Below are positions 8,173-26,508 of a stretch of 64,000 bases of DNA, in pieces. The stretch spans positions 45,438,743-45,502,742 of the forward strand of contig QVOM02000112.1 in the NCBI GenBank assembly GCA_003586115.2, in the 5' to 3' direction. Both the position numbers and the translations under genes were made by a program. Every line of letters begins with the position of its first letter. Positions within the stretch are counted from its first letter, which is position 1. The notes beneath the pieces were generated by a model. The model was not told where the DNA came from, made no database searches, and saw only the letters and a program-made list of their open reading frames with translations. This DNA comes from Salvator merianae. Its lineage: Eukaryota > Chordata > Lepidosauria > Squamata > Teiidae.

Positions 8173-8178
8173 AGTTGT
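8173..8178. repeat. provirus target-site duplication, left
   Basis: AGTTGT directly precedes the 3' LTR end and is repeated exactly at 15299-15304. The 6-bp length matches alpha- and betaretroviral integration. Confidence 0.93.
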
Positions 8179-8560
8179 TGCTGCCCACGTTCAGGAACAA
8201 ATGAGAGCCGAAGCAAGAAATGGTCTTCATGGAGGCATCCCGAGCTCTCCCATGTCTTGTCTTTTATTGATATATACATTAGCATGTTATCTGGTGTTAT
8301 TAGCATATGCACACCAGATTGGATATTGCTCCTCATGCACACAACTTCGATTGGGTGAATTATAGCATGATCGCCGCGTGATCTACAGGTGCCTAATCAA
8401 CAAGTGCTTGGCATACAGACTTTCTGCTTAATCTTCAGTGTTCTTACATTTCTACAAAGTCATGCAGTTATTGCAATATTGCACAACTCTCCTCTCCTGA
8501 CCATACCCGTGGTGTGCCAACAAGGCAGGTCAAGCAGCGGACAGCTAGCAATATTCTACA
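8179..8560 (-). repeat. 3' LTR (382 bp)
   Basis: On the minus strand it starts TGTAGAATATTGC and ends GGGCAGCA. It contains a TATA-like element (TATAATT, + strand 8358-8364) and the polyadenylation signal AATAAA (+ strand 8263-8268), about 100 bp apart. I see no difference from the 5' LTR copy. Short frames over it on both strands are not genes. Confidence 0.96.
8263..8268 (-). terminator. proviral polyadenylation signal
   Basis: AATAAA on the minus strand in the 3' LTR (TTTATT on +), about 84 bases before the LTR end. It is expected to direct 3' end formation of viral RNA. The equivalent site in the 5' LTR is 15001-15006. Confidence 0.75.
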
Positions 8561-8574
8561 TCTCCCCCTTTTTT
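8561..8574 (-). promoter_or_regulatory. polypurine tract
   Basis: On the minus strand AAAAAAGGGGGAGA directly abuts the TG of the 3' LTR, the required position for the plus-strand primer. A further A-rich stretch with isolated C lies just upstream. Env ends only 12 bases before it, so there is no room for a 3' accessory gene. Confidence 0.9.
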
Positions 8575-8586
8575 GTTTTTTTGTTT

Positions 8587-10056
8587 TTAAACAGCAACCC
8601 CTGTTGCTTTTGTCAATTTATAAGAGCGATCTATCAAGCGGCGCTCATGCTTGTCATACCCCTTTGGCAGACCATTAATACACATTGTCAAAAGATTCGG
8701 AATACATTGAAGGGCACAGCAGCCCAGAATCAGTATACAGATTGTAATAACAACATATTTGACTGCTTGCTTTAGCCAATGAAAATCTGGCAACCATCCT
8801 AGCAATTCCTCCCAAAAACCATCCCAAAAGGATGTTTGAATGGTGATTTGATTTGTTAAGTTCTTCAGAGTCTGGATCTGCTGATACACTCCTTTACTGT
8901 TATCTCGGACATCAAAACAACACATTCCTTCCACTGCCTCACAGCCTCAATGATGTAGAAGCAGTAGATAGTCAATAGCAGCCCGGTTTTGTAACAATCC
9001 ATGTCTTATTTCGGCCTGCTCTCGATTAAGTAGTGCTAGGGCTGTGGAGGTAGCATTTAAACTTTTCATAGCCCAACACGCTAATTCATGTATGTTCTTG
9101 GCATTGCCCACGGCCAGACCAGGTACCCCTATAAGCGATACTGCTAGGGCAGTATACTGCGCTTTACTAAGCAGTTTTACTTCTGAATCACAAGTGGAAT
9201 CCAAATGAGTGGATCTACGAGATCTTGCAACATTCCGAACTTTGGGTGGAAGTACTAATGATAATCGGCTCAGGCAACATTTAGTTCCATCTGTCACATT
9301 AGCCGGTATATAATTGAAGGTATATCCAGAACAGGTCCAAAACCAACCTAATGGCAAAGTCTGAAACTTGTACACATATGAAACGTTTGTATATCCAGAA
9401 CAGTTAAGACTGTTTTCTTTCCCCAGATACACACATGTTCTCCCTGTACAATTCACCACTCTGGCACAAGTCATATTATAACTGGCCATGCATGGTGTTC
9501 TAAGTTGCATGGCTAATCTTGGCTTTGAATGTGTCTGCTGTCCCCAGTTATAATACGCCCTATAGCCTTCAGAACGAAGTGAATTGTTTGCTTTTAGAGT
9601 CTGGTAAAACCAAGTGAACTCTTGAATATCCTCAGGCTCGTGGCAGACTGGAATCATACATGTCCCCAACACATCTCCTACTGCTACTTGATTAGTTAAA
9701 CAAAAGGTTGACTGATTCAAAGAATTAGCAAATGCTTCCCACACATTTTCCTTTGGCAGCTCCGCAGTGCCCTGCGCCACCCCACCACCCAAGGTAACCA
9801 TCACTAGACACATTATTAAGGTCAAAGAATTTGCATTCAAGGCAGCTATTACAGCCACCAGAAAGTTTTCATCAGTTTTTTCCAGTCCTTGCTGCTCCAA
9901 CAGTCCATTAGCTTGGGCGGATAATGCTTTCACCCTACCCCAAGTAATAGGAGTATGATTCTTTGGATCACCCCTCTTCCGCTTCAGACGGGGCGGATCC
10001 TGGAGCTGTAATGTGAAGTTTGGGATTGGATCTTGCAGACCCTGATGCCACGACAT
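8587..10056 (-). pseudogene. env, alpharetrovirus-type surface/TM glycoprotein with one internal stop
   Basis: The frame runs from the first ATG at 10056-10054 (a GTG at 10122 lies in the same frame) to 8587, with one TGA at 8947-8949. Counting from the ATG, a leader has a basic cluster (RLKRKRG, about residues 23-29) before a hydrophobic segment at about 65-90, likely a long signal peptide. SU carries about seven N-glycosylation sites. The cleavage site is RSRR at about 278-281. The TM subunit starts with an internal hydrophobic fusion segment between two cysteines (about 289 and 327), then LQNRAAIDYLLL, the stop, a CX6CC motif, a membrane anchor at about 431-456 and a Cys-containing tail. 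The internal fusion peptide plus CX6CC is the alpharetroviral class. It overlaps the pol 3' end by about 90 bases from the ATG. It would be made from a spliced RNA and act on the virion surface. Confidence 0.92.
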
Positions 10057-12634
10057 GAGGTCGAACGAACTTGGCAGGAACCCACCGTGGTCCGCTCTCA
10101 GTTGCGACTGCCACGTACCCACGCCCCCAGGTGATTAAGGGCACTGGAGCACTCCACTGCTTCCCTGGCAAAATGCGATACGTCACCAGAGGCTGTGGTA
10201 AAGGCTCAGATGTTCTAAAATGCCGTTCTACTCGAGAAAAAGAAGATAAGTTCAGATTCATGGTTATACGAAGATTAAGATGATTCAAAGTGTATAGTAC
10301 TCCTGCCAACCATTCTTCCCTGTCTGCCAATCCACTGCCAACCCCTATTCCCCCTTTTTTGTTTTGTGCTTCTAAAGCATTCTTGAGGGTACGATTGGCA
10401 CGTTCTACGATCGCTTGCCCGGTTGAATTATAGGCTATGCCAAAAGTATGAATGATATTCCACCGTTCCAGAAACTGCGCCAGGTCAGTAGAACAATACG
10501 CAGGAGCGTTGTCCATTTTTAGTTTCTTGGGCACGCCCATCACAGCAAATCAGCGGACAAGATGATTTTTTACATGTTTTGTGGCCTCCCCTTTTAGGGG
10601 AGTTACCCATAAATAACCAGAGAAAGTGTTTATAACTACATGCAAGTATGACCATGGATGGAATGGTGCGAAGTGCGTAACATCCATTTGCCATAGGTCA
10701 TTACTAGCCAAGCCTCGGGGGTTAACCCCAATAGGAGGATAAGTCAAATGTTGAGCACATTGTGCGCATTGCTGAATAATTGCGCGTGCCTCATCATCAG
10801 TAAGATGGAATTCTTTCTTTAAGGCTTTGGCATTTTGATGATGAAGTGTGTGACTTTCAAAGGGGGCGCTTAAATCGGTGGTGCAAACATTAAGCGATCG
10901 TAATTGCTGATCGGCATAGGCGTTTCCCTCCGAAAGGAAGCCTGGAAAAGACTGATGACTCCTAATATGTGCTACAAAAATAGGATACAACCTAAGTTCC
11001 AGTACATGTTGTAAAGATAAAAACAATGCCCATAAATTGTTATCTATTTGCGGAGAAACATAACTCCCGTATATGCGAGACACTAACCCAGCTACATAAC
11101 AACTATCTACGATAATATTTAATGGCTGATGTGCATACAGTTGTAAAGCAAGAATGACTGCAGCCAATTCAGCTCGCTGTGCAGATTTCTGCGGGAGTGT
11201 GAACTGTGAGTGCCAACTGCCCTGATACCATGACACTACACCTCGTGTGGGACTGCCGTCTGTAAATACAGTAAGTGCGTCCACTAATGGAACTGAACTA
11301 AGCACTGGATTGAGGGCCATAGGAATCAACATAAAGCTGTGTAGGCGAAAGTCTTTTGGTACATGGCAGTCAACAGTGCCTACATACCCTTCCAAGGCTA
11401 TATGTAGTGCATCTGACTCACGACACAGGGTTTCCCATTCCACTAATGATAAAGGTACAATTAATTCCTGGATGTCAATAGCAAAGAGGGCACGAGCCCT
11501 GTATCGCAACTTGGACACAAGCTGAGCCAGCATCTGACTTAAGGTAGTCAGACTGGCATGGAGATTGTGGCCAAGATACAACCATTCAATAATACGTACT
11601 GTCTCCTTTTGCTTCTGGATAATTGCAGCAGTTGGCTGTCGCCCTGTTGGCATATTCATTATGACCCCTTTTGGTGGGAGATTAGGAAAGGCACGATCCG
11701 TCCAAACCGTACCCAATATTAACTGCAATCTATGTATGATGTCCCTTTGTTCAGCATTTAACATTATCGTCTCTCCAGGACTGCTGTGGCCCTTAAGAGC
11801 CAAAAACAAAGGTCGTAAGAATTCCGTTGGTAATCGTACATATGGACGAAGCCAATTTATATCCCCCAATAACTTTTGCAGCTGAACATACGTTAATTTC
11901 GCAGGGATCTCTATTTCGGGGCGCAAGGGCAAGGAGTATGCCTGGGTCATCTTATGACCGAGGTATGTAAATGGCTCTGCTAGTTGCACCTTTTCAGGAG
12001 CTATAGCAAGGCCACTTTTAAGCAGGATACTTTGAAGCGTTACCTGCCAATCGGGGGGCAACGTTGGCCCTGAGATCAAGATGTCATCCATGTAATGGAT
12101 CACCATCAACCTAGGAAATTGATCTCTAAAGGGTTGCAGTGCTGCATCCACATAAGTCTGACAGATAGTAGGACTATTTAGCATGCCCTGCGGAAGGACG
12201 GTCCACTGGAAACGTCGAGTGGGTCTGTGATTGTTCTCTACAGGGACAGTAAATGCAAAATATTTTCTGTCCCGGGGAACCAACGGAATAGAAAAAAAAC
12301 AATCCTGTAAATCTATTATTGCCAGTTCGTACCCTTGCGGAATCAAATTTGGATTTGGTAGCCCACACTGTAGTGGACCCATGGGCTCTATAATTTCATT
12401 TATTCTTCGAAGATCATGTAGAAGTCGCCATTTACCTGACTTCTTTTTTATGACAAATACAGGTGTGTTATAAGGACTGACTGTGGGTTCAAGATGCCCC
12501 TGGCGAAGCTGCTCCTCCACTAAATGAGTCAAAGCCTCTAACTTATCCTTAGACAGGGGCCATTGATCCACCCACACAGGCTGATCCGTTTTCCATGACA
12601 AAGGAATTGCCTTAGCCATGAGTGTTAATGTCTA
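9968..12634 (-). pseudogene. pol: reverse transcriptase, RNase H and integrase, one internal stop
   Basis: The frame follows directly, in phase, after the pro stop TAG (12632-12634). Numbering from the ATG at 12619, reverse transcriptase has its first catalytic Asp in IIDLQD (about 103) and YMDD at 176-179. RNase H shows Asp454 (FTDGS), Glu484 (RAELAA), Asp505 and Asp570. Integrase has an N-terminal His/Cys zinc site (C618, C621), Asp646 (WQMDVTHF), then TGA at 10550-10552, then Asp703 (KMDNAPAY) and Glu739 (VERANRTL), a correct D,D(35)E spacing. All catalytic residues are present, so the stop is the only visible lesion. The protein copies and integrates the viral genome. It would be translated after gag-pro frameshifting and passage of the TAG. 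The similarity is closest to beta/alpha-type polymerases. Confidence 0.94.
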
Positions 12635-13456
12635 GTCCGGTATGTGTAATGTAGCTCCCAACTGTTCCAGCAGATCCCTGCCCCACAGGTTAAACGGGAC
12701 CGGAAGGACGCAGGGTTTAATATATCCCTGAACTTCTGCATCGTGTGGTGATTTTGTTATTCCCAGCCAGTCACGACTAATCTGTGCAGCTTGTTGTCCT
12801 CCCACCCCATACACTGTTGGAGCTTCTTCCAGGAGCCATGACGATGGCCACTCCTTAGAAGAAAGAACTGACAGGTCTGCCCCCGTGTCTAAAATCCCTT
12901 GAAACTCTTTGCCCCTTAAACAATACCGTGCTATCGGTTTCTCGGCCGCTGAAGGCTTTACCAACGCCGCAATCTGCACCGCAGACTGAGATCGGGTAGA
13001 ACCGAAACCCCCGGTTCGTTCGGTTTTTGTGGCTGTAGGAGGTAGAATACATGACAATGTTATTAACTGTGCCCAAGAATCCCCAGGGTGGATTGTGAAA
13101 GGCAAATAGCTCCAGGCTTGCACTTTGATATTTCCTTTGCAATCCGCATCCACTACCCCTGGTATAATGTGGATGCCCTGTTTGCTAGCAGAGGAGCGTG
13201 GAAGGATGAGCCCCACCGTATTATGCGGTAATGGGCCATATAATTGCGTAGAGAAGATAATGACTTCCCCAGGTAGCTTCGCATCCCTCATTTCTGCAGC
13301 TACCAAGTCAATGCCTGCACTTTGCTGTGTGGCTGGTGGTTGGTTAAAAAAGGTCTTTCTACCCCCTATTGTCCCTGGGCCTGGGGCTGGCCCGTCCTCC
13401 CGTTTCCCGAGGTGCACTGGTTTGCCCAATGATAACCCTTTCCACATCTTGGACAC
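12632..13456 (-). CDS. pro: dUTPase-aspartic protease
   Basis: The frame is -1 relative to gag and is closed upstream by TAA at 13460-13462, so it must be entered by frameshifting at 13402-13408. The dUTPase comes first: AGIDL (about 48), PRSSASKQGI (86-95), GVVDADCKGN (100-109), GDSWAQLI (125-132) and the glycine-rich RTGGFGSTR (147-155). The protease follows, with the catalytic DTGA at 190-193 and a C-terminal LWGRDLLEQLG. It ends right after the protease core with no G-patch domain, unlike typical betaretroviral pro. The dUTPase would limit uracil in viral DNA; the protease matures Gag and Pol. The GTG at 13456 is only the frame edge, not a start. The usual tyrosine of dUTPase motif 3 reads as cysteine. 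Confidence 0.92.
   Translation of the reverse strand: MSKMWKGLSLGKPVHLGKREDGPAPGPGTIGGRKTFFNQPPATQQSAGIDLVAAEMRDAKLPGEVIIFSTQLYGPLPHNTVGLILPRSSASKQGIHIIPGVVDADCKGNIKVQAWSYLPFTIHPGDSWAQLITLSCILPPTATKTERTGGFGSTRSQSAVQIAALVKPSAAEKPIARYCLRGKEFQGILDTGADLSVLSSKEWPSSWLLEEAPTVYGVGGQQAAQISRDWLGITKSPHDAEVQGYIKPCVLPVPFNLWGRDLLEQLGATLHIPD
13362..13393 (-). promoter_or_regulatory. predicted frameshift-stimulating H-type pseudoknot
   Basis: Eight bases after the slippery site, GGGCC (13393-13389) can pair with GGCCC (13381-13377). The intervening loop AGCCCCA contains CCCC (13386-13383), which can pair with the G run at 13366-13362 just past the gag stop. The spacing and the two GC-only stems are typical of retroviral pseudoknots. 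It is a pairing inference from sequence, not tested. Confidence 0.7.
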
Positions 13457-14817
13457 TTCTTAGTAGGACGATTTTGTTTCCCCCCTGTTCCACCTTTAAA
13501 GGCCCCCCCTCCGGGTGCTCTGCATTCCCTTTTGAAATGGCCGGGTTTTTTACAATTAAAACAATTGCCTGTGGGCTTATGCCCTTGCTGGAGTGCACCA
13601 GCCAAGAGGGCCATACTATGACCTTGGCTGCCGACTTCTGCGCAGGCTTTGATCATATCAGAAAGGTCATATGTGAGACGATGTATCACCTGTTGCAAAA
13701 CCTTTCTGCAGTCCGAATTCGCATTCTCATAGGCCATTTTAAGCAGAAGTTCTCCTCGGGCTTCAGAACTCTCAACCTGCCTAGCAATTGCCTCTTTTAA
13801 TTTGTCAATGAATTGGGCATAAGGCTCTCCATTAAGTTGCTTTATGGAAGAGAAAGACTTTGTGGGCTTTCCGGTCTCAGGAACCCTTTTAAAAGCCCTT
13901 AGAACACATTGGCTTATTGCTAAATAAGCAGGAGCTGGCAGCTGAATTTGCATATTAATTGAACTAAATTGCCCACTGCCGTATATCTGCTCTGGTGTGA
14001 CATTTGGAACTTGTATTTGCGTAGCACCTAATCTATATTCACTGTCCCACACCACATACTGTGAGGGCGACAAAACCATGCGAAACAAATCTTTCCAATC
14101 CCTGGGAGTCATGGTATGTGCATTTGAAATGTTCTCTAGCATGCCTGAAACAAAAGAGGACCGAATTCCTGTCTCCGTTATTGCCTTCCTTAATTCCCTC
14201 ATTACCATAAAAGGAAGAGCCGTCCAGTTGGCTACTATGTTCTCTTGAGCATTTTGTGTATAATTTACAGGGAAAAGAGTCAGTCCCGTCCCTTTTTCCC
14301 AAATGTCATCTGCCCAAAAATTGACTCCCGCCTGTCTTGCCGCTTCAAGTCCCGCCTGTACCGCTCCCATAACCCGGGGTTGCAGCGTAGGCGCCTTCTC
14401 TGGTGTTACCCCCGGAACTACCGCCTCTTCTTCTGTGTAAGGCGGTGCCACCTCTATCGGTGGACTTGGAGGGAGAAGCTGTGGATATAAACTTGTTGGT
14501 TCCTTAACTGTCAGAAGTGACTGGGCAGTCGGGGATGCCTCGGGACCCATATGCCCAACCGCCTGTGCCACTGCCTGCCAGGTTACCAAGTACTGCACTT
14601 CTGCCCTCGGTTCTAGGTATAAATGCTTCCCTATCTTTTCCCAGGAAGCTTTATCCAAGCTCCCTTTATCCGGATACCATGGACATTGACATGCTATTTC
14701 TCTAAGCAGTTCTTCAATTTCTTTCTGGGTGATTTTCCCATTTCTATCCACATGCTGCAGGATACTATGTAACTCTTCAGCATGCCTTTTTTGTTCCGCA
14801 GACAGCCCGCTGCCCAT
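13366..14817 (-). CDS. gag polyprotein
   Basis: I place the start at the ATG 14817-14815, giving MGSG, a myristoylation signal, 483 residues. The frame is open further upstream but without another ATG. The matrix domain comes first; a proline-rich stretch (PPSPP, APPYTEE) may hold a late-budding signal. A capsid major homology region is seen at QLNGEPYAQFIDKLKE. Nucleocapsid has two CCHC zinc knuckles, CFNCKKPGHFKREC (about 419-432) and CPRCGKGYHWANQC (about 455-468). The frame ends at TAG 13366-13368 without internal stops. It forms the virion shell and packages RNA. The style and the two knuckles fit betaretroviruses and alpharetroviruses alike; the frameshift at its end links it to pro. 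Confidence 0.94.
   Translation of the reverse strand: MGSGLSAEQKRHAEELHSILQHVDRNGKITQKEIEELLREIACQCPWYPDKGSLDKASWEKIGKHLYLEPRAEVQYLVTWQAVAQAVGHMGPEASPTAQSLLTVKEPTSLYPQLLPPSPPIEVAPPYTEEEAVVPGVTPEKAPTLQPRVMGAVQAGLEAARQAGVNFWADDIWEKGTGLTLFPVNYTQNAQENIVANWTALPFMVMRELRKAITETGIRSSFVSGMLENISNAHTMTPRDWKDLFRMVLSPSQYVVWDSEYRLGATQIQVPNVTPEQIYGSGQFSSINMQIQLPAPAYLAISQCVLRAFKRVPETGKPTKSFSSIKQLNGEPYAQFIDKLKEAIARQVESSEARGELLLKMAYENANSDCRKVLQQVIHRLTYDLSDMIKACAEVGSQGHSMALLAGALQQGHKPTGNCFNCKKPGHFKRECRAPGGGAFKGGTGGKQNRPTKKCPRCGKGYHWANQCTSGNGRTGQPQAQGQ
13402..13408 (-). promoter_or_regulatory. -1 ribosomal frameshift slippery site GGGAAAC
   Basis: In the gag frame the bases fall as G GGA AAC (minus strand), the canonical X XXY YYZ phase. 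Slippage by -1 enters exactly the pro frame, whose only upstream stop is at 13460-13462 and whose overlap with gag ends at 13366. The same heptamer is the gag-pro shift site known in some primate betaretroviruses. The next entry gives the stimulatory structure. Confidence 0.88.
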
Positions 14818-14828
14818 ATTCGGTGAAA

Positions 14829-14835
14829 TACTCAC
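14829..14835 (-). promoter_or_regulatory. predicted major splice donor
   Basis: GTGAGTA on the minus strand, 11 bases before the gag ATG in the short (99-base) leader, matches the consensus 5' splice site. It would serve the spliced env RNA. The acceptor upstream of env was not fixed. Confidence 0.55.
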
Positions 14836-14898
14836 GAAAGCGCAGACTTTTCCAGTCGAGAATATGGACTCCCTCGGCCGCGGTTTGACCTTGAATAT

Positions 14899-14916
14899 CA
14901 CGTCGGGGTCACCAGC
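14899..14916 (-). promoter_or_regulatory. primer-binding site for tRNA-Trp
   Basis: The minus strand reads TGGTGACCCCGACGTGAT, complementary to the 18 bases at the 3' end of vertebrate tRNA-Trp including CCA. It begins within two bases of the 5' LTR end (a GC precedes it). tRNA-Trp is the primer of avian alpharetroviruses; most betaretroviruses use tRNA-Lys. Confidence 0.9.
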
Positions 14917-15298
14917 TGCTGCCCACGTTCAGGAACAAATGAGAGCCGAAGCAAGAAATGGTCTTCATGGAGGCATCCCGAGCTCTCCCATGTCTTGTCT
15001 TTTATTGATATATACATTAGCATGTTATCTGGTGTTATTAGCATATGCACACCAGATTGGATATTGCTCCTCATGCACACAACTTCGATTGGGTGAATTA
15101 TAGCATGATCGCCGCGTGATCTACAGGTGCCTAATCAACAAGTGCTTGGCATACAGACTTTCTGCTTAATCTTCAGTGTTCTTACATTTCTACAAAGTCA
15201 TGCAGTTATTGCAATATTGCACAACTCTCCTCTCCTGACCATACCCGTGGTGTGCCAACAAGGCAGGTCAAGCAGCGGACAGCTAGCAATATTCTACA
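14917..15298 (-). repeat. 5' LTR (382 bp)
   Basis: Same length as the 3' LTR and, read base by base, identical. It includes TATAATT (+ strand 15096-15102) and AATAAA (+ strand 15001-15006). It would act as promoter for leftward transcription. Confidence 0.96.
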
Positions 15299-15304
15299 AG
15301 TTGT
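15299..15304. repeat. provirus target-site duplication, right
   Basis: AGTTGT directly follows the 5' LTR and matches 8173-8178. Confidence 0.93.
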
Positions 15305-15717: not shown

Positions 15718-16546
15718 GGTGTGTTCAGACTAGCAATTTTTAAAATCACCTGCATAAAAGGAGCAAATAATTCCTGAGCACACAGAAAAAAAGCCTTCCA
15801 AACACAGTTACTTGTTGAGCTGATTCAATGCTTACCCATAGTACAGCCTGCAAAGTGTGCTGCTGACTGACTGGCCACTCCCCACCTGTCGGCTGAAGCA
15901 GTTTCCAATTCCTTAACTGTCGGGGGGGGGGGGGGTCTTTGTTTCTCTGCAAAAGAAAATCAAGTCTCTCTTTCTCTCCTTACTCCTCCTTATGAGAAAT
16001 CCAGTGTGATTTTCTAATCTAAAGAAGGCAGGAGAGGAGTTGATTTTGTAGATCTGTTTAATGGAGCTCAAAAGTTCCTGGTGCCAGCAAGAGCTTGCTG
16101 GTGCCCCTCCCTCCTTGTCTGATTGCCTGATGTCTTCAAGTCAAGGCTGTGAAACGTTCCGCTCAATTCTCTCCCCACACCCCACCTCATTACTAAAGCC
16201 CAGTGTGCTTTTTAAGTACAGAAGGCAGGATAGGAAGGATTTTTTGTTGTTGCACTTCAGTTTCCTTTGCTCTTCAACAATTGCCCAGCACCAACAAGAA
16301 CTCGCTGGTGCCCCTCCCTTCCTGTCTGATTGTCTGATGGGTTCCTGCAAGGCTGTGAATGGTGGAGGCACTCCCGCTCAGCACTAAGGCAACCCAAAAG
16401 TTCTTTTCTCCTGCCTGTTGAAGGGGCAAATATTTACAAACTTGGAGGCAGTTGGAGGCATGATAAGGTGAATTTTCTTAATTCCTGTGTGCACCCTGGG
16501 TCAAATTCACCCAGAAGGTGACTGAAATACCTAGTCTGAACACACC
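15718..16546 (+). mobile_element. ~830-bp non-autonomous DNA transposon, copy 1
   Basis: Perfect 16-bp terminal inverted repeats GGTGTGTTCAGACTAG bound the segment. The same ends and sub-terminal sequence (aaaatcacctgcataaaagg and its neighbours) occur in the reverse orientation at 33416-34253. No transposase frame is present; open frames inside are short. No target duplication could be settled. Confidence 0.85.
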
Positions 16547-26041: not shown

Positions 26042-26508
26042 CACTGGCGTAGCTAGCAGCTTTGACGCCCGGGGCTAAACGGCGGTGGGCGGGGTGAGCG
26101 AGCGCACATGCGTGTGGGTGGGGCCAGCAAGCGCGTATGTGGGCGAGCGGGGTCAGCGAGCGCACATGCCCCGTTCGTCGCCCCGGCCGGCTGCGGCCTC
26201 GCTCGTCGCCCCACCCGGCGGCGGCCTTGCTCGTCGCCCCGCCCGGTGGCAGCCTCGCTCGCATCACCCCGGCCCACCTGGTGGTGGCCTTGCTCGTGGC
26301 CCCACCCGGCGGCGGCCTCGCTGTCATCGCCCCAGCCCGTCCGGCGGTGGGCTCGCTCGTCACCCCGCATGCACGCCGGCATGCTTGATGGCCCCGCACG
26401 CACACCGGCGGGCGGGGCGACGACCGCGCTGACGCCCAACCCGGACAATGTGCCGCCCGGACACCTGGGGCACAGCGCCCTCCGCGCCCCACCCTCGCTA
26501 CACCTCTG
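26042..26508 (+). mobile_element. GC-rich hAT-like non-autonomous transposon
   Basis: The insert is bounded by the 8-bp direct repeat CCATTGAC (26034-26041 and 26509-26516), the duplication length of hAT transposases. Its ends are inverted: CACTGGCGTAGCTAG at the left against CAGAGGTGTAGCGAG from the right, 11 of 15 matching. It has no transposase; the interior is extremely GC-rich compared with the surrounding AT-rich DNA and consists mostly of a tandem repeat. The 80-170-codon frames on both strands are products of that repeat. Confidence 0.82.
26172..26408 (+). repeat. 28/35-bp GC-rich minisatellite inside the hAT element
   Basis: About eight units begin CGCTCGT(C)GCCCC and end GGCGGCGGCCT or close variants. 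Most are 28 bp; two or three are about 35 bp because of an extra ~7 bases. Unit identity drops towards the right end. Confidence 0.75.

What the first reader, a model, noticed from the sequence alone, without database searches (positions are those of the whole stretch)
8179..15298. Complete alpha/beta mosaic endogenous retrovirus in a squamate-like genome
Betaretrovirus-type traits (dUTPase fused ahead of protease in a separate -1 frame, GGGAAAC shift site, long basic Env leader) coexist with alpharetrovirus-type traits (tRNA-Trp primer site, no G-patch, pol in phase after protease, Env TM with internal fusion peptide between cysteines and CX6CC). That combination suggests either an intermediate lineage between the two genera or recombination. 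The motifs are seen directly; the lineage assignment is inference.
Basis: partly seen in the sequence, partly recalled or inferred. Interest (0 to 1): 0.92.

Follow-up and report, generated by a model that had tools for sequence, protein, structure and literature searches.

The report
Recombinant reptile endogenous retrovirus family
A young, multi-copy endogenous retrovirus of a reptile-like genome joins betaretrovirus-like internal genes to an alpharetrovirus-like surface protein, and its polymerase gene sits behind an unusually conserved stop codon.

Summary
The provirus is real: minus strand, identical 382-bp LTRs, 6-bp target duplication, tRNA-Trp primer site, at least 34 copies in its genome. 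Gag is far nearer to betaretroviruses than to RSV, the best solved relatives of dUTPase, protease and RT are betaretroviral, and the gag/pro frameshift site matches Rfam RF01097. Integrase barely discriminates. RT falls in a strongly supported reptile class II clade; no alpharetroviral RT was available. The Env TM is the opposite: its best solved relative is the avian sarcoma/leukosis TM. The Env leader resembles HERV-K Rec (below cut-off). The mosaic is best read as recombination inside env; a deep intermediate lineage is not excluded. dUTPase without G-patch is already described for chicken alpha-beta ERVs. 'Pol in phase after protease' is not an alpha trait: a stop codon separates them in 21 of 21 copies, and likewise in two diverged families (14 of 14, 10 of 10), each with a nearby in-frame ATG. 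That suggests Pol made by reinitiation or readthrough; neither is shown. This copy is not coding-complete: stops in integrase and Env are private to it.

The parts
14917..15298 (-). 5' LTR, 382 bp
   Evidence: identical to the 3' LTR, TG...CA ends
8179..8560 (-). 3' LTR, 382 bp
15299..15304 (.). target site duplication, 5' flank (ACAACT on the minus strand)
8173..8178 (.). target site duplication, 3' flank
14897..14914 (-). primer binding site, 18 nt, tRNA-Trp
   Evidence: sequence; host tRNA-Trp(CCA)
13366..14817 (-). gag from MGSGL: MA (Gag_p10), CA (Gag_p24 N and C), two zinc knuckles
   Evidence: Pfam; positions
13360..13408 (-). gag/pro -1 frameshift element: GGGAAAC slip site and stem (a pseudoknot is inferred by eye)
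   Evidence: Rfam RF01097, 45.7 bits against gathering 43; 7 of 7 other copies tested
12635..13456 (-). dUTPase-protease frame (dUTPase 13339-13037, RVP 12943-12644), no G-patch
   Evidence: Pfam
12632..12634 (-). conserved pro stop codon, in phase with pol
   Evidence: 21 of 21 copies, 10 TAG and 11 TAA
12617..12619 (-). in-frame ATG, 15 nt after the first base of the pro stop; proposed pol start
   Evidence: 21 of 21 copies; use as a start is inference
10553..12619 (-). pol: RT, RNase H and N-terminal part of integrase
   Evidence: Pfam; frame
10550..10552 (-). private in-frame stop in integrase
   Evidence: absent in 20 of 20 copies
9968..10549 (-). pol: rest of the integrase core and C-terminal domain
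   Evidence: Pfam
8950..10134 (-). env ORF up to the private stop
9823..10056 (-). Env leader with basic stretch, HERV-K Rec-like
   Evidence: PF15695 in 8 of 9 leaders at E up to 1; window's own E 0.08, 13.5 bits against a cut-off of 27.5
9214..9747 (-). SU, ending at an RSRR cleavage motif
   Evidence: some related rows carry weak Avian_gp85 matches
9076..9192 (-). TM fusion-peptide region between Cys311 and Cys349 of the Env ORF
8947..8949 (-). private in-frame stop in TM
   Evidence: absent in 20 of 20 copies
8587..8946 (-). rest of TM with CX6CC, membrane anchor and tail
8561..8574 (-). polypurine tract
   Evidence: sequence

Best explanation
This is a recently inserted copy of a class II (betaretrovirus-like) endogenous retrovirus family of a reptile-like genome. 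The family has a recombinant env: a Rec-like leader of betaretroviral type continues into an SU-TM of the alpharetroviral ('avian gamma') type, with the junction between about 9823 and 9747. Shown: anatomy, copy number, young LTRs, the frameshift element, the gene-by-gene affinities, and the conserved stop between pro and pol. Inferred: Gag-dUTPase-Pro is made by a -1 frameshift at GGGAAAC. Pol then comes from ribosomes that end at the pro stop and restart at the nearby ATG, which I favour (about 0.5); readthrough of the stop comes next (about 0.35) and a spliced pol mRNA last. Reverse transcription starts from tRNA-Trp. The Env leader is an ER signal with possible Rec/Rem-like activity. The family spread while Pol was probably under purifying selection. 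This copy is now defective through two private stops.
For: Bits to solved structures (virus names marked * are recalled, not printed; lists capped at 60 rows). Gag: 8c9m 159 (IAP*), HERV-K CA 90, 6hwi 85 (M-PMV*), best RSV CA row shown 27.6. Protease: 3sqf 57 (M-PMV*), tethered HIV dimers up to 51.5, RSV/MAV rows 46-41; dUTPase: 2d4l 63 (M-PMV*), no alpha comparator. RT: 7sr6 466 (HERV-K*), next lentiviral* about 200, no alpha comparator. Env profile: ASLV TM 75, syncytin-2 50, 4n21 GP2 48 (snake arenavirus*), filovirus-type* GP2 47, MLV-type 26 or less. RT tree: 15-row reptile clade, SH-aLRT 100. The leader aligns only in six rows, all named as turtles or lizards, while SU-TM also aligns with rows that, as annotated, lack it (Mabuya Mab4, rabbit, Aotus), which places the junction after the leader. 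PF15695 is hit by 8 of 9 leaders, each other family by 1 of 9. Frameshift: RF01097 in the window and 7 of 7 copies. Pro stop plus ATG: 21 of 21, 14 of 14 and 10 of 10 loci in families A, B and D. Pol: shared variants 30 nonsynonymous to 32 synonymous, neutral expectation 2.09 to 1.
Against: No alpharetroviral RT was available, so RT cannot be shown to be nearer beta than alpha. Integrase barely discriminates: 103 bits for 7usf (MMTV*) against 82.7 for RSV, and by pairwise score the window gives MMTV 285, RSV 234 but SRV4 only 211. Deep branches are unresolved in both trees. The Rec match of the window's own leader is below cut-off, the strongest whole protein reaches 25.3 against 27.5, and the HML-2 signal peptide itself lacks RNA export activity (PMC2649029, passages). 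An N-terminal Met close to RT is common in other class II Pol proteins too, so the ATG may be older than any reinitiation. UGGGA, a motif of known reinitiation sites, stands upstream in the two family A rows printed and in none of the four B and D rows printed.
Confidence: 0.76

Rival explanations
1. A single deep lineage between alpha- and betaretroviruses, in which leader, SU and TM were inherited together and no recombination is needed.
For: PMC1224870 places chicken alpha-beta ERVs and Python RV between the genera. Our trees show a separate reptile clade with unresolved deep branches, and integrase is about as close to RSV as to SRV.
Against: Affinity differs sharply between Gag and TM, and the Env leader is Rec-like while SU-TM also occurs without it in other proteins as annotated.
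Confidence: 0.18
2. Pol is made by programmed readthrough of the pro stop, as gammaretroviruses do after gag.
For: In families A, B and D pol is in phase 0 after a conserved stop. Readthrough is the known retroviral use of an in-phase stop.
Against: Stops are mostly TAA (35 of 45), followed by AUG, CUC or ACA, which fit none of types I-III as described in the passages seen (PMC3542737). The 105 nt from the stop fold no better than shuffles in the three examples tried (z -0.30, -0.39, +0.33). In family C pol is +1 to pro in 5 of 5 loci, which readthrough cannot serve.
Confidence: 0.35
3. The pro stop is an old defect inherited from a broken master copy that was moved by other elements' Pol.
For: Internally deleted copies with a shortened pro-env distance exist (1135, 1187 in three, 395 and 423 instead of 2513), so movement in trans probably occurs.
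Against: The same layout recurs in families B and D, whose dUTPase-protease is 40-44% and 32-35% identical to this one. Shared Pol variants are depleted of nonsynonymous changes, and the stop switches between TAA and TAG while staying a stop.
Confidence: 0.08
4. Recombination ran the other way: alpharetroviruses took their env from a reptile class II virus like this one.
For: The alpha-type TM is present in turtle, lizard and other Env proteins, and alpharetroviral env is itself thought to be recombinant (PMC3758190).
Against: No rooted TM tree could be made; the solved alpharetroviral TM match is only 69 residues.
Confidence: 0.25

Closest known systems
Chicken 'alpha-beta' intermediate ERVs (PMC1224870; authors recalled as Jern et al. 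2005)
   Same: class II, dUTPase before protease in 21 of 67, no G-patch detected, described as lying between alpha and beta
   Different: described as -1/-1 for gag/pro/pol; env recombination, a Rec-like leader or a pro stop are not mentioned in the passages seen
Python ERV (PyERV)
   Same: reptile class II gag-pol with a foreign env (PMC3758190); unclassified and endogenous (PMC3230843)
   Different: its env is like a murine gammaretrovirus and no dUTPase was found
TgERV-F of songbirds
   Same: alpharetroviral class II ERV with an env gained by recombination; describes an avian ERV with alpha and beta features that I take to be the same
   Different: env of mammalian gamma type
Betaretroviruses with Rec/Rem/SP leaders (HERV-K HML-2, MMTV)
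   Same: Gag/pro frameshift element RF01097 (its simian type D origin is recalled), dUTPase-Pro, MA/CA/NC, Rec-like Env leader
   Different: no G-patch, pol in phase behind a stop, alpha-type SU-TM
Alpharetroviruses (RSV/ALV)
   Same: tRNA-Trp primer (recalled for RSV), TM with fusion peptide between cysteines and CX6CC
   Different: dUTPase and long leader present here; gag and pro in different frames; Gag much less similar
Mabuya Mab4 and reptile Env genes in databases
   Same: SU-TM of the same type at 41-57% identity in the named sauropsid rows other than the truncated P0134 at 39%
   Different: Mab4 as held lacks the long leader and the second fusion-peptide cysteine

Membership tests
Betaretrovirus (class II) | two zinc knuckles and beta-type Gag | tested here: met
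   Gag nearer HERV-K than RSV
Betaretrovirus (class II) | dUTPase N-terminal to protease in the -1 frame | tested here: met
Betaretrovirus (class II) | pol in the -1 frame of pro | tested here: not met
   phase 0 with a stop, 21 of 21
Betaretrovirus (class II) | G-patch after protease (mammalian members) | tested here: not met
Betaretrovirus (class II) | RT/IN inside the betaretroviral clade | tested here: inconclusive
   separate reptile clade, deep order unresolved
Alpharetrovirus | RT/IN grouping with RSV | tested here: inconclusive
   integrase lies in a reptile clade that excludes RSV (94/90), but RSV was the chosen outgroup on a flagged long branch; RT not testable
Alpharetrovirus | pro in the gag frame, pol at -1 | tested here: not met
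   definition
Alpharetrovirus | avian gamma-type TM | tested here: met
Alpharetrovirus | tRNA-Trp primer | tested here: met
   not constant in the family
alpha-beta intermediate ERVs | class II with dUTPase-Pro and no G-patch, between the genera | tested here: inconclusive
   first two met; tree position not testable without their sequences
termination-reinitiation systems | start codon close to the stop of the upstream ORF | tested here: met
   45 of 45 loci of families A, B, D
termination-reinitiation systems | UGGGA motif upstream of the stop | tested here: inconclusive
   present in 2 of 2 family A rows printed, absent in 4 of 4 rows of B and D printed
termination-reinitiation systems | downstream protein made without fusion | not testable with these tools
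   needs protein or ribosome data

The most novel reading that the evidence does not exclude
A whole lineage of reptile orthoretroviruses makes Pol not as a Gag-Pro-Pol fusion but from its own start codon by termination-reinitiation at the end of pro. This frees pol from any fixed phase (0 in families A, B and D, +1 in family C) and would require a separate way to package Pol.
Probability: 0.35. Interest if true: 0.82.

Novelty: new variant of a known kind. Interest (0 to 1): 0.55.

Why it matters
It adds a young reptile family in which the 'avian' Env type sits on betaretrovirus-like internal genes behind a Rec-like leader. That bears on where the alpharetroviral env came from. The conserved stop and ATG between pro and pol make a basic assumption testable: that orthoretroviruses deliver Pol as a fusion.

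Tried and rejected
Alpharetroviral RT: no row named as one among the 120 listed of 603 hits, many of them unnamed; none seen in the PDB lists, 60 of 219 rows shown and 4 rows; the viral contig scan gave no relative. So RT was not placed against alpha. RNA folding from the pro stop gave no unusual stability in three examples. The plain MFE fold of the gag/pro site was also unremarkable (z +1.32), although the Rfam model matches. Rfam around the pro/pol junction: two chance-level hits. N-terminal Met near RT was tried as support for reinitiation and found not to discriminate. Host naming through globin and COX1 gave no species. An exact tRNA pattern gave none; a looser one found one. ORFs of 150 or more residues elsewhere in the window: the five tried had no Pfam match. 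Junction loci not countable in families A-D: L099 and L100 of the 12 and L124 of the 20 (L099 and L124 without an RT match, L100 fused without a stop); L120 counts in B at the junction though its RT match is shifted by a later frame break. L108 was fetched and not used. Rows dropped: RT tree P0011, P0017 and ownC; integrase tree P0011, P0015, P0058, P0086, P0099, P0118. The P rows for the trees were chosen by hand, 42 and 38 of the 120 listed. In one search, 40 codon columns with more than two codons were left out. On re-checking I lowered the main confidence from 0.82 to 0.76 and raised the intermediate-lineage rival from 0.13 to 0.18, because the integrase scores do not separate beta from alpha.

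Full report
Observation. The element lies on the minus strand of the window from 15298 down to 8179. The two LTRs are 382 bp and identical, and both flanks carry ACAACT. The window lies in a held genome of 2.05 Gb. A search with the dUTPase-protease protein scored 141 of 354 candidates there; 34 of the 141, the window included, cover the whole query at 95-100% identity, and all 34 have the same 275-residue frame length, 2 of them with a stop inside. Forty LTR matches of 94 candidates were scored, at 96-100%. Counts are lower bounds. Of 20 full-length copies examined, 19 gave measurable LTR pairs with 0 to 8 differences over 360-382 aligned bases, and 16 of 19 have identical 6-mers at both flanks. 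This is a young, mobile family. No substitution rate was applied, so no ages are claimed.

Integrity. In this copy a TGA interrupts integrase (10552-10550) and another interrupts Env in TM (8949-8947). Neither is present in any of 20 other copies. Env is open for 515 codons in 19 of 31 rows that cover residues 1-391 or 5-391 of the Env query (counted from the listing). Pol variants shared by two or more of 21 copies are 30 nonsynonymous to 32 synonymous, singletons 65 to 48, against a neutral expectation of 2.09 to 1. That points to purifying selection on Pol while the family spread; no significance test was run, and 12 of 21 pieces hold at least one in-frame stop.

Genes. Pfam finds Gag_p10, Gag_p24 N and C, two zinc-finger families, dUTPase, RVP, RT, thumb, RNase H and integrase domains, and on Env a sub-threshold Ebola-like HR1-HR2 match. 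The slip heptamer GGGAAAC is in the gag frame as G GGA AAC and leads into the dUTPase frame. It begins an element matching Rfam RF01097, the Gag/pro ribosomal frameshift site, at 45.7 bits, above the gathering score of 43. The same element is found in 7 of 7 other loci tested. The tRNA-Trp identity of the primer site rests on an ARAGORN-called tRNA-Trp(CCA) gene in the same genome. The site is exact in 8 of 20 copies, carries 1-3 changes in 11 and was not found in 1, so it is a weak genus marker.

Mosaic. Against solved structures, Gag scores far higher with betaretroviral entries than with RSV. Protease is best with a betaretroviral entry, but tethered HIV dimers come next and the margin over RSV/MAV is small. 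dUTPase and RT are best with betaretroviral entries, with no alpharetroviral entry to compare. Integrase prefers MMTV to RSV by 103 to 82.7 bits, but by pairwise score RSV (234) lies between MMTV (285) and SRV4 (211), so it does not decide. Several entry identities are recalled, as marked in the evidence field. A profile of 15 Env relatives does the reverse of Gag: the best entries are two ASLV TM chains at 75 bits, then syncytin-2 at 50 and GP2 proteins at 48-47. The TM has the cysteine pair around the fusion peptide, the first 8 residues after the RSRR motif, and CX6CC. PMC3758190 (2013; authors recalled as Henzy and Johnson) defines these as the avian gamma-type, then known only from alpharetroviruses (passages). 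Here the same type appears in turtle and lizard proteins and in a few mammalian database proteins; in Mabuya Mab4 the second cysteine is missing.

Where the junction lies. The window's Env begins with a leader of about 100 residues with a basic stretch. Leaders of six database Env proteins and two loci of a second family align to it at 40-53%. Eight of these nine leaders hit Pfam HERV-K_REC at E up to 1 (best 2.9e-6), whereas each other family is hit by one member. The window's own leader is below cut-off (E 0.08). SU-TM relatives from rabbit, Aotus and Mabuya lack this leader as annotated; truncated gene models could mimic that. The simplest reading is that the alpha-type SU-TM was joined behind a betaretroviral leader, between about 9823 and 9747. 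Direction and donor are open.

Trees. In the RT tree of 46 rows the window sits in a 15-row clade (SH-aLRT 100, quick method) with turtle, snake, Varanus and unnamed sequences and two other families of its own genome, apart from mammalian beta and bird class II rows; the deep order is open and no alpha row was available. In the integrase tree of 35 rows it sits in a clade of 9 reptile and unnamed rows (94/90) that excludes RSV; RSV was my outgroup, on a long branch that the program flags as unsure, so whether that clade is nearer to alpha or to beta is not decided.

The pro/pol junction. PMC1224870 gives RSV 0/-1, betaretroviruses -1/-1, HIV -1/0 and HTLV -1/+1 for gag-pro/pro-pol. Here a stop codon separates pro from pol in the same frame. 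It is a stop in all 21 copies examined (11 TAA, 10 TAG), with an ATG at a fixed place behind it in 21 of 21. Two diverged families of the same genome have the same plan: family B TAA-ATG in 14 of 14 loci, family D TAA plus three codons and ATG in 10 of 10. Family C has pol at +1 with a pol-frame ATG 29 nt upstream of the pro stop (5 of 5 loci: three, two). A -1 frameshift at the end of pro cannot connect pro to pol in any of these. Reinitiation is the one mechanism that suits all four families; readthrough suits three. Neither is demonstrated. Contexts do not fit the readthrough types described in the passages seen (PMC3542737), downstream folding is ordinary, and an N-terminal Met near RT is common in other class II Pol proteins, which weakens the ATG argument.

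Literature. Nine paper searches in the open PMC library listed nothing that I recognised as describing this stop-ATG layout or a Rec-like leader on an alpha-type env. Subscription papers are mostly missing there, and the Python ERV paper was not read. For PMC1224870 I saw passages and one whole section; for PMC3758190, PMC10536682, PMC9967133, PMC6001957, PMC4299795, PMC3542737, PMC2649029 and PMC3230843 passages only; others only as listings.

Verdict. A recombinant member of reptile class II ERVs: mosaic confirmed, partly for other reasons than given. Its new combination of known parts makes it a new variant of a known kind; the Pol expression question is the most novel part.

Noticed in passing
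L101-L104 (family B relatives); 28 places: In 4 of 4 loci read most of env is deleted but the Rec-like leader remains as a 118-residue frame followed by a stop and the TM tail. One search lists 28 places that match only the leader, 15 with a 118-residue frame, 22 without a stop inside the match.
   Followed up: partly
G000:C682:646942, C1427:10547, C1682:23942967, C846:45081457, C63:72703406, C1689:15385: Family A copies with large internal deletions between pro and env (distance 1135, 1187 three times, 395 and 423 instead of 2513), as expected of non-autonomous derivatives.
   Followed up: no
family A primer sites, L049-L068: Two primer-site subtypes: the tRNA-Trp match and a variant with two changes; the variant's tRNA was not identified.
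   Followed up: partly
P0133, P0137, P0138: Rabbit, Aotus and unnamed Env proteins with the cysteine-flanked fusion peptide usually called avian gamma-type.
   Followed up: no
window 13159 (dUTPase motif III): The dUTPase third motif reads GVVDADCKG, with Cys where many dUTPases have Tyr (recalled); activity may be altered.
   Followed up: no
window 26084-26368: GC-rich imperfect tandem repeats in a 51% GC stretch.
   Followed up: no
window 16084-16137 and 16291-16344: A 54-nt direct repeat at 85% identity, about 0.8 kb outside the 5' LTR.
   Followed up: no
G000:C1705: A mitochondrial-type COX1 (11 TGA in frame) on a 22,020-bp contig, long for a vertebrate mitochondrial genome.
   Followed up: no
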